Below, piece by piece: positions 28,362 to 31,536 of a stretch of 35,410 bases of DNA; positions within the stretch are counted from its first letter, which is position 1, and each line of letters starts with the position of its first letter. The DNA comes from a bacterium BMS3Abin14 (GTDB lineage Bacteria > BMS3Abin14). The notes below the pieces were generated by a model. It was not told the DNA's origin. It was given only the letters and a program-made list of their open reading frames with translations, and did no database searches. The translations under genes and the position numbers were made by a program. The stretch lies in contig BDTG01000046.1 in the NCBI GenBank assembly GCA_002897695.1, forward strand, positions 1 through 35,410, read 5' to 3'.

Positions 28362-28418
28362 GTAAGTTATCCTGTTGACCAGAATATTTCCGTAGGCCTT
28401 GACTTGCGCATAACTTAC
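28362..28418. promoter_or_regulatory. Inverted repeat in the lexA promoter region
   Basis: GTAAGTTAT (28362-28370) and ATAACTTAC (28410-28418) form a perfect 9-base inverted pair. The second arm lies between the -35 and -10 of lexA; the first is also part of AGGATA-N9-TATCCT (28353-28373). Either could be LexA sites; LexA boxes vary greatly between deltaproteobacterial groups, so this is a candidate only. Confidence 0.4.
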
Positions 28419-28427
28419 GCTTATACT
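28399..28427 (+). promoter_or_regulatory. lexA promoter
   Basis: TTGACT, a 17-base spacer and TATACT match the sigma-70 consensus closely. The start would be near 28434, giving a leader of about 75 bases before the lexA GTG. Confidence 0.75.
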
Positions 28428-28507: not shown

Positions 28508-29110
28508 GTGAGCCCATTGACCCCCAAACAGAAGCTGATTCTGGATTTCATCCGCTCCCACATCAGGGATAAAGGCTACGCCCCTTCACAGAGGGAAATT
28601 GCCGAGACGTTCGGGTTCCGGTCCCTGGGGACCGTCCAGAACTATCTGGTGCGCCTGGAAAGGGAGGGGTTTCTTACCCGGGAATGGAACGCCCGGAGGG
28701 GCCTGAGGGTCTCCGGAACGGTGGCACGGGGATATGAGCTTCCTCTGGCCGGGACTGTGGCAGCGGGGAAACCCATCGAGGCGATCGAGACATCGGACAC
28801 CATCGAGGTGCCCAGTTCCATGGCCGGGACCGGAGAGAACTTCGTTCTCCGCGTCAAGGGTAGCTCCATGATCGAGGACGGCATCCTGGACGGGGATTTC
28901 GTTATCGTAAGAAAGCAGAGAACCGCCGACAACGGCCAGACAGTGGTGGCACTCATGGAAGGCGAGGCCACCGTCAAGCGCTTTTTCAGCAACGCGGATA
29001 CAATCGAGCTGCGTCCCGCCAATACAGGGATGGAGCCCATTGTGGTCGGGAAAAACGAGGACCTTCAAATAGAAGGGGTTGTGATCGGGGTTATCCGGCA
29101 TTGCGGGTGA
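28508..29110 (+). CDS. lexA: LexA repressor
   Basis: A 200-residue SOS repressor. The N-terminal winged helix (TPKQKLILDFIRSHIRDKGYAPSQREIAETFGFRSLGTVQNYLVRLEREGFL) binds operators. The self-cleavage site is Ala86-Gly87 in AGTVAAGKP; the catalytic dyad is Ser120 (KGSSMIEDG) and Lys157 (ATVKRF). RecA filaments would trigger cleavage. The GTG start has GGAGGT seven bases upstream; upstream codons in the frame are leader. Everything needed for function is present, in contrast to the two broken genes that follow after 18 bases and were surely its targets. Confidence 0.96.
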   Translation: MSPLTPKQKLILDFIRSHIRDKGYAPSQREIAETFGFRSLGTVQNYLVRLEREGFLTREWNARRGLRVSGTVARGYELPLAGTVAAGKPIEAIETSDTIEVPSSMAGTGENFVLRVKGSSMIEDGILDGDFVIVRKQRTADNGQTVVALMEGEATVKRFFSNADTIELRPANTGMEPIVVGKNEDLQIEGVVIGVIRHCG

Positions 29111-29128: not shown

Positions 29129-29995
29129 ATGACCCGCGATATCCTGCACATTAACATCCCCCACTTTCCCATCGCACTGGCAAGGGTAGTTGATCCCTCG
29201 CTTTACGAACGGCCGGTGGCGGTGGTTCCGCGTCATTCTGATCGGGCCATCATTCAGTGCGCATCCCCTGAGGCTGTCGCTGAAAGGGTGTCCGAGGGAA
29301 TGCCGGCAACAAGCTTGTCTCCCGGATCGCCTCAGCCTGCCTGAGAAGCCACGGCGTCTGCGACATCATGCGAGGCAGCGACGGCATTTTCCTCGCCCCT
29401 TTCAGTATGTCTGTTCTTCCCGGGGTGGGCAGAACACGCGCGGGCCTTCTGCTCACAGATCTGAACCTGACCCGAGTCGGTGAGATCGCCGCCACCCAGA
29501 CCCACCATCTGGCGCTGATCTTCGGTCCTTTTGCGCATCTACTTCACCAGCGATCACTCGGCATCGATCCATCTCCCGTTCTCCTTCCGAATCGGATTCA
29601 GGAAATAACGGAGGAATCATTCATGACTGTGGAGAACAATTGCGACTTCGTCCTGAGGTCGGAGCTGTGCCGGCTGGTGGAGGGGTGCGGAATACGTATC
29701 CGGCGCATGGGCAGGACAGCGGGCGAACTCACCTTGACCATATATTACACGGATGGGGTAACCGCAAAACGTGCTTCACCCCTGCCCTTACGGACATGGA
29801 TATCCTTCTGTTTGCCGCTGCAGAGGAACTCTTTGAAAGAACGTGCCGAAGACGTGTTCGTGTCAAGGGGATGCGCCTCGTTCTGGGGCGGATCACCGAC
29901 ACCGACCGACAGCTCAGGCTGTTTCCCGCCAGGGGGGCCTGGGAAAAGACGCAAAAAATCACCGCGTTGCAGGGCGCCCTCGACCAGGTGAGGGA
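29129..29995 (+). pseudogene. imuB: imuB (Y-family polymerase-like) pseudogene
   Basis: Three frames carry consecutive parts of an ImuB/DinP-like protein. Part one (29129 to about 29303) has ILHINIPHFPIALARVVDPSLYERPVAVVP and ends at EGMPA. Part two (about 29305-29785) resumes with NKLVSRIAS, FLAPFSMSVLPGVGRTRAG and the little-finger region; around 110 residues of the palm between the two are missing. Part three (from about 29787) holds TDMDILLFAAAEELFER and RQLRLFPARGAWEKTQKITALQGALDQVREA, after a simple frame shift. Intact ImuB proteins are near 450-500 residues and link the beta clamp and DnaE2. The end runs without a stop into DnaE2 sequence. Confidence 0.85.
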
Positions 29996-31536
29996 AGCCG
30001 GAATACAACCGATCATCGGCGCGGAGGCTGATGCCGGCGGTTACAGAGCGGTCATCCTGGCCCGCAACACCGATGGATATTCCAACCTGTGCCGCCTTCT
30101 CTCCGACCTGCACTGCAAGAAAGGCTTTCACCTGCCCGGCGCCCTGGAAAACTATCGTGAGGGGCTCATCGTAATTAGTGATGATAGCAAATTGATATCA
30201 TATCTGCGTAAGTACTCCTCCGGGAACCTCTTTGTGGAGATGTCCCCCGGGCACCTGATGCGCAGGGCACTGGCGCTCGCCGGGAGGTTCAGGCTCCCCC
30301 CCGTCGCCACATCAAGGGCCGTCCTGTTAAACGAGAGCGACCATGAAATTCACAGGGTTCTCAGGGCCATCGCCCTTAATAAGAAGCTGTCCCGCCTGTC
30401 CGCGGATGACCAGGCCAGTGAGATGGATGTCCTTCTGTCGCCGGACCGCATCGCCGATCTCTACCCTCACTGCCCCGAGGCGCTGGAAAACGCTGCCGCC
30501 ATCGCCCAGGAATGCGTTGCAGACTGGGATTTTCAGGGCACGATCTTTCCGCCCTTCAGGGACATGGACAGGGACGAGGCTATCTGCGAGCTCGAAAAAC
30601 GCACGCGGCAGGGGGCTCTTCGGCGTTATGGAACAATTTCGGACAACATCGAAAGGCGATTAAAAAAGGAACTTTCCCTCATACGGGACAAGGGCTTCGC
30701 GCACTACTTTCTCGTCGTGGAGGAGCTTGTGGACCCAGAGCCGCCATGCGCGAACTGGCAAAAGTATACGGTATCCCCGCGCATGAGATAAGGGACTTCA
30801 CCGGGGAAGCCCTCGACAGGAACTGGGAGAAGATCCTCCAATCCATCCATCTCCTTGAAGGACGGATGAGACACCTTTCACTGCACTGCGGCGGTCTGGT
30901 GATCGTGCCCGACGAGATACGTAAATACGTCCCGGTCGAGATATCCGCCAAGGGCCTGCAGGTGATCCAATGGGAAAAGGATACCTGTCCGAGGCCCGCC
31001 GAATGGGGCTTAGAGTCCTGCCGCCTGATATCAATGCCAGTGGTTACCACTATACGGGCATGGATAGGGTCATCCGGGCGGGGCTGATGCAGATACAGGG
31101 ACTCTCTGGAGAGGGGTTGGATTCCCTGCTGGATGAGAGGGAAAAGCATGGCCCCTTCATCCGATTCGGCGAATTTATGGCGCGGGCTCCGCTGGACCTC
31201 CACCGTGACGCCATGCGAGGAATCAGGGCAGTTCCGGCCAGGAAAATGAAAGGGTGGGCAGGCAGGCACATCACCATGGTCGGCTGGTGGGTAACGGGAA
31301 AGCCGGTCCGGACGAAGAACGGAAGACCCATGGAATTCGCCACTTTCGAGGACACTACGGACATCTTCGACGCGACCTTTTTCCCCGGTGCCTACGCACG
31401 ATTTCACAAGAAACTCGCCCAACAGCGCCCCTACATCCTCAAGGGCAGGGTGGAGGTGGAATACGGCGTCGCCACCCTCAATGTCGGGTGGGTCGGCTTT
31501 CTGGACGATGCCCGGACCGGAGAAGAGCTAACTTGA
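29996..31536 (+). pseudogene. dnaE2: dnaE2 (error-prone Pol III alpha) pseudogene
   Basis: Segments of DnaE2 follow in order but in three frames. Segment A (to about 30725) begins inside the PHP domain at GIQPIIGAEADAGGYRAVILARN and goes to FAHYFLVVEE. Segment B (about 30745-30985) carries AAMRELAKVYGIPAHEI, RHLSLHCGGLVIVPDEI and LQVIQWEKD. Segment C (about 30975-31536) begins GYLSEARRMGLRVLPPDINASG and ends with the OB-fold (ITMVGWWVTGK...ATFEDTTDIFDATFFP). Missing are the PHP N-terminus with HSHxS, about 90 residues between A and B, and most of the palm between B and C. Intact DnaE2 is about 1000-1050 residues, so half is gone and no polymerase activity can remain. Confidence 0.88.

What the first reader, a model, noticed from the sequence alone, without database searches (positions are those of the whole stretch)
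29129..31536. Mutasome genes imuB and dnaE2 decayed behind an intact lexA
The lexA-imuB-dnaE2 order is that of the known SOS mutagenesis cassette. LexA keeps its promoter, cleavage site and catalytic dyad, but imuB has lost most of its palm and has a frame shift, and dnaE2 has lost its N-terminus, a 90-residue block and most of its palm, with the parts in three frames. The loss suggests selection against, or no need for, damage-induced mutagenesis, while LexA still controls other genes.
Basis: partly seen in the sequence, partly recalled or inferred. Interest (0 to 1): 0.7.

Follow-up and report, generated by a model that had tools for sequence, protein, structure and literature searches.

The report
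Recently broken SOS mutasome, orphaned LexA
This uncultured bacterium has recently lost, through several large deletions, its only DNA-damage-induced error-prone copying machinery (ImuB and DnaE2) while keeping the repressor LexA that used to control it; its sister species has lost the same genes too, apparently on its own.

Summary
Window 28508-29110 is an intact LexA behind an intact promoter; the 2.4 kb after it is the wreck of imuB and dnaE2. Against intact cassettes in four related genera, five large deletions, one 23-residue deletion and a frameshift remove about a quarter of ImuB and half of DnaE2, including its catalytic motifs; survivors lie in three frames. The genome (2.28 Mb, rated 100% complete) holds no other dnaE2 or imuB, only DnaE1 and one DinB. 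The remnants show no nonsense codon in about 798 codons, so decay is recent compared with the split from the one held sister species. That species has deleted nearly everything, so two separate losses are likely.

The claim that LexA 'still controls other genes' is not supported. A conserved direct repeat (ACTTACG-N4-ACTTACG) in the lexA promoter, the presumed operator, marks essentially only this lexA in family genomes and is absent at recA. The only other exact core copy in this genome lies in a phage-like element. The relatives' second LexA (lexA-dinB) is missing from this genus. LexA is best read as a cassette-specific repressor orphaned by loss of its cassette. Why the cassette was lost cannot be told from sequence.

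The parts
28399..28427 (+). lexA promoter TTGACT-17-TATACT
   Evidence: conserved block in G002, G006, G007, G008, G011
28402..28419 (+). presumed LexA operator, direct repeat ACTTGCG-CATA-ACTTACG
   Evidence: function inferred from conservation
28508..29110 (+). lexA, intact, 200 aa, GTG start
29129..29305 (+). imuB remnant, residues 1-59
   Evidence: G002, 73% identity; PF00817 partial hit
29284..29787 (+). imuB remnant, residues about 138-301, frame 3
   Evidence: 57% identity
29781..29978 (+). imuB remnant, residues about 307-374, frame 2, fused in frame to the dnaE2 piece
29979..30743 (+). dnaE2 remnant, residues 51-305 (rest of PHP domain and start of the polymerase domain)
   Evidence: 60% identity to G011
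30737..30982 (+). dnaE2 remnant, residues 387-491 lacking 23 internal residues, frame 1
30982..31197 (+). dnaE2 remnant, residues 746-817, frame 3
31168..31536 (+). dnaE2 remnant, residues 893 to the end (OB-fold region), frame 3, with the stop codon

Best explanation
This is a dead lexA-imuB-dnaE2 cassette of the ImuA-less kind. In the ancestor, RecA-stimulated self-cleavage of LexA would have derepressed its promoter and switched on a catalytically inactive Y-family protein (ImuB) with the error-prone polymerase DnaE2 (inferred from known cassettes). In this lineage several deletions and a frameshift recently removed the polymerase active site and broke the frames, so no working ImuB or DnaE2 can be made (shown). 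LexA is intact and probably still represses its own promoter (inferred), but no other cellular gene with the conserved operator is visible (shown at the sensitivity used). The sister species lost the same genes by its own deletions (inferred from age and relics). The most likely cause is relaxed selection on induced mutagenesis followed by deletional decay (inferred).
For: Intact lexA-imuB-dnaE2 in four related genera. Deletions mapped that remove PDIDIDF (residue 348) and KIDILG (residue 500). No other dnaE2 or imuB in the genome. Sister species G001: lexA 87% identical, then only short ImuB and DnaE2 relics, then the same convergent MFS gene. No nonsense codon in about 798, against 14 expected if neutral since the split from G001 (median dS 0.57, about 0.285 per branch). 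Operator candidate restricted to lexA and one phage-like site. Most other genes on the contig are full length against G001.
Against: No reads are available, so an assembly error at this locus is not formally excluded. Several large deletions with one small frameshift and no nonsense codon is an unusual mix. The operator is inferred from conservation only; LexA could bind a divergent site. Only two genomes of the genus are held.
Confidence: 0.85

Rival explanations
1. Assembly artefact: the real locus is intact and the metagenome assembler dropped or mis-joined pieces.
For: The genome is a 49-contig assembly with no reads to check. No nonsense codon and several clean internal deletions would fit dropped pieces.
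Against: At least five separate junctions within 2.4 kb would be needed, while 69 of 75 and 72 of 76 matched ORFs on the contig are full length against G001. No intact copy lies elsewhere in the genome. The sister species shows real loss at the same place.
Confidence: 0.08
2. The loss was a single old event in the genus ancestor, and the two species only differ in how much debris is left.
For: Both species of the genus lack a working cassette.
Against: Zero nonsense codons in the remnant against about 14 expected by simulation; amino-acid divergence of the remnant from G011 is only slightly above that between intact relatives (61.5% against 65.6% and 60.4% identity).
Confidence: 0.1
3. LexA is kept because it still governs a cellular SOS regulon through sites unlike the lexA promoter repeat.
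For: lexA is intact and constrained between the two species (dN/dS 0.165, contig median 0.14). It is the only LexA in the genus.
Against: No site at recA or at the fetched dinB locus. The repeat marks essentially lexA alone in each relative. Most of the constraint on this branch may predate the recent loss.
Confidence: 0.3
4. A remnant frame, such as the fused ImuB-DnaE2 frame at 29640-30791, still makes a useful non-catalytic protein.
For: Open frames of 188 to 383 codons survive without stops.
Against: The frames cut across domains, active-site parts are gone, three of the five large deletions change the frame, and recency of decay explains the lack of stops.
Confidence: 0.03

Closest known systems
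lexA-imuA-imuB-dnaE2 (imuABC) mutagenesis cassette, reviewed in PMC3901139
   Same: LexA-led operon with an inactive Y-family protein (ImuB) and DnaE2, in conserved order in the family's intact copies
   Different: No imuA between lexA and imuB; in this genome imuB and dnaE2 are broken
ImuA-less LexA/PolY/DnaE2 variants, e.g. Deinococcus lexA-imuY-imuB-C-dnaE2 (PMC6511836, PMC8072749)
   Same: lexA with an inactive Y-family protein and DnaE2 but no imuA in the operon; Deinococcus species also differ in having or lacking SOS mutagenesis
   Different: No separate imuB-C gene was seen in the family's operons; here the broken intermediate stage is caught

Membership tests
LexA-regulated ImuB-DnaE2 mutagenesis cassette (ancestral state) | lexA, imuB and dnaE2 adjacent and in one direction | tested here: met
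   Intact in G002, G007, G008, G011, and in G004 up to its contig end; remnants in the same order here
LexA-regulated ImuB-DnaE2 mutagenesis cassette (ancestral state) | ImuB lacks the Y-family catalytic residues | tested here: met
   DinB HVDMD and SIDEAFLD become e.g. HLNIP and SPGRLYLD in the family's ImuB
LexA-regulated ImuB-DnaE2 mutagenesis cassette (ancestral state) | LexA operator in the cassette promoter | tested here: inconclusive
   A conserved direct repeat lies inside the promoter spacer in five relatives, one mismatch here; binding not tested
LexA-regulated ImuB-DnaE2 mutagenesis cassette (ancestral state) | imuA in the cassette (classical form) | tested here: not met
   No imuA between lexA and imuB in the family's intact loci; imuA elsewhere not searched; ImuA-less variants are known (PMC6511836)
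Functional mutasome in this genome | Intact DnaE2 polymerase active site | tested here: not met
   Residues 306-386 and 492-745 deleted, with both catalytic motifs
Functional LexA repressor | DNA-binding domain, Ala-Gly site, Ser/Lys dyad | tested here: met
Functional LexA repressor | RecA-dependent self-cleavage and operator binding | not testable with these tools
   Needs biochemistry

The most novel reading that the evidence does not exclude
A cassette-specific LexA that lost its cassette now serves its own promoter and a resident phage-like element carrying the same operator, so the host's last LexA is kept, or exploited, as that element's damage-sensing switch.
Probability: 0.07. Interest if true: 0.6.

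Novelty: new member of a known kind. Interest (0 to 1): 0.36.

Why it matters
It catches loss of damage-induced mutagenesis in mid-course: intact in sister genera, freshly broken here, almost wholly deleted in the next species. It is a natural case of an SOS repressor outliving its regulon, shows that a lexA gene alone does not imply an SOS mutagenesis response, and offers a lineage-specific direct-repeat operator candidate for this group of LexA proteins.

Tried and rejected
A search for a second dnaE2, imuB or other Y-family polymerase in the genome found only DnaE1 (C43) and one DinB (C5). A search for a second LexA in the genus found none. recA upstream regions and the dinB locus gave no operator. 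Strong relaxation of lexA was rejected because its dN/dS is ordinary. Old decay shared with the sister species was rejected because the remnants hold no nonsense codon. Microhomology at deletion junctions was looked at only for the first imuB junction, where GCCGG occurs at both ends in G011 and only partly in G002; relatives are too diverged for a firm claim. The paper on dispersal of the cassette (PMC1326238) is not held. Two early calls failed on a wrong lexA frame.

Full report
WHAT IS THERE. The window is contig C46:1-35410 of a 2.28 Mb, 49-contig genome rated 100% complete. LexA at 28508-29110 is intact by profile (TIGR00498, 6.8e-61) and by residues (Ala-Gly cleavage site, Ser120, Lys157). 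A near-consensus promoter TTGACT-17-TATACT lies at 28399-28427. Downstream, 29129-31536 holds pieces that match ImuB and then DnaE2 in order but in three frames.

INTACT RELATIVES. Of 12 genomes in the same family (window genome included), G002 (one contig), G007, G008 and G011, from four other genera, carry full-length lexA, imuB (396-422 aa) and dnaE2 (1008-1017 aa) in a row. G004 has the same order up to its contig end, G006 has lexA-imuB up to its contig end, and G009 has imuB-dnaE2 on a short contig. The ImuB proteins lack the Y-family catalytic residues that DinB keeps, so they are ImuB-like, and no imuA lies in the operon. The closest named records are metagenome-assembled genomes labelled Proteobacteria, Pelobacter or Desulfuromonadales.

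THE DAMAGE. Mapping intact proteins to the remnant gives these gaps: ImuB about 60-137; the imuB/dnaE2 junction with DnaE2 1-50; DnaE2 306-386; a 23-residue piece; 492-745; and 818-892; plus one frameshift near 29780. In G011 numbering the motifs PDIDIDF (348) and KIDILG (500) fall inside deleted blocks. That these hold the three catalytic aspartates is from established knowledge of the DnaE family. No polymerase activity is possible.

NO BACK-UP COPY. The genome's only other C-family polymerase is DnaE1 (1160-aa frame, C43) and its only other Y-family gene is a DinB (C5).

AGE AND INDEPENDENCE. The only other held genome of the genus, G001, has LexA 87% identical. Behind it are only a trace resembling the ImuB C-terminus (ALDRVREKCG) and 54 bp of the dnaE2 3' end (81% identical), then the same convergent MFS transporter gene. 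Both species therefore descend from a carrier. Median dS between them on the contig is 0.57, so about 0.285 per branch. A simulation of neutral change at that level gives about 14 nonsense codons in the remnant; none is seen, and a neutral time above roughly 0.045 is unlikely. The cassette thus died late on this branch, well after the split, and G001's loss is most simply a separate event. This inference assumes equal branch rates and no selection on the fragments.

LEXA AND ITS TARGETS. The promoter block TTGACTTACGCAWAACTTACGC is identical upstream of lexA in five genomes from four other genera, and has one change here. It contains ACTTACG-N4-ACTTACG, a direct repeat of period 11, which I take as the LexA operator (inferred). 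Genome-wide, the 16-base core TTACGCAWAACTTACG occurs without mismatch once in each of those relatives, at lexA. In this genome it occurs at lexA (one mismatch) and exactly at C16:32623. With the looser half-site pattern and one mismatch allowed, the only further site in the family is one in G006. C16:32623 lies in a phage-like element with a capsid-like gene and a Nu1-like small terminase gene (these gene names come from reading the sequences, not from a profile search). recA upstream regions in 11 genomes and the dinB locus of this genome have no match. G001 has no site; its lexA upstream region contains several hundred different bases, and a recognition-helix residue conserved in the six other aligned LexAs (N in TVQNYL) is S. 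Relatives also carry a second LexA, next to dinB in several and near an smc-like gene; the genus lacks it. So the remark that LexA still controls other genes has no positive support, although a divergent site cannot be excluded. LexA's dN/dS of 0.165 is ordinary, but on this branch most of that constraint may predate the recent loss.

ARTEFACT? Without reads an assembly fault cannot be excluded. Against it, 69 of 75 and 72 of 76 matched ORFs on the contig are full length between the two species, and the sister species shows loss of the same genes.

KNOWN CONTEXT. ImuA-less cassettes with an inactive Y-family protein and DnaE2 are described (PMC6511836), and Deinococcus species differ in having or lacking such a cassette (PMC8072749). 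The locus is therefore a known kind of system caught in a transitional state.

Noticed in passing
G000:C16:32621-32638 (locus L136 3622-3639): Second copy of the presumed LexA operator core (exact 16-mer) in a phage-like element at a contig end, between a small ORF and a capsid-like gene; chance expectation about 0.002 for the genome.
   Followed up: partly
L008 4304-4870 (sister genome G001): About 450 extra bases with internal repeats (GCGCCCACTGAAGGGCGC... twice) sit upstream of lexA, and the conserved promoter/operator is missing.
   Followed up: partly
L165, L166, L167 (G011, G007, G002): A second LexA (about 40% identical) next to dinB and near an smc-like gene in relatives, absent from the window's genus.
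   Followed up: partly
G001 C33:77886-80966 against G000 C46:73699-75402: A 1026-aa frame in the sister species matches only over its first 557 residues here; possibly another shortened gene.
   Followed up: no
L033 3755-3945 and 5120-5200, L034 4215-4365: Low-complexity repeats of the form AATCCAAAATCC or TGGAATATGAAAT lie between lexA, imuB and dnaE2 in relatives; they might promote rearrangement of the cassette.
   Followed up: no
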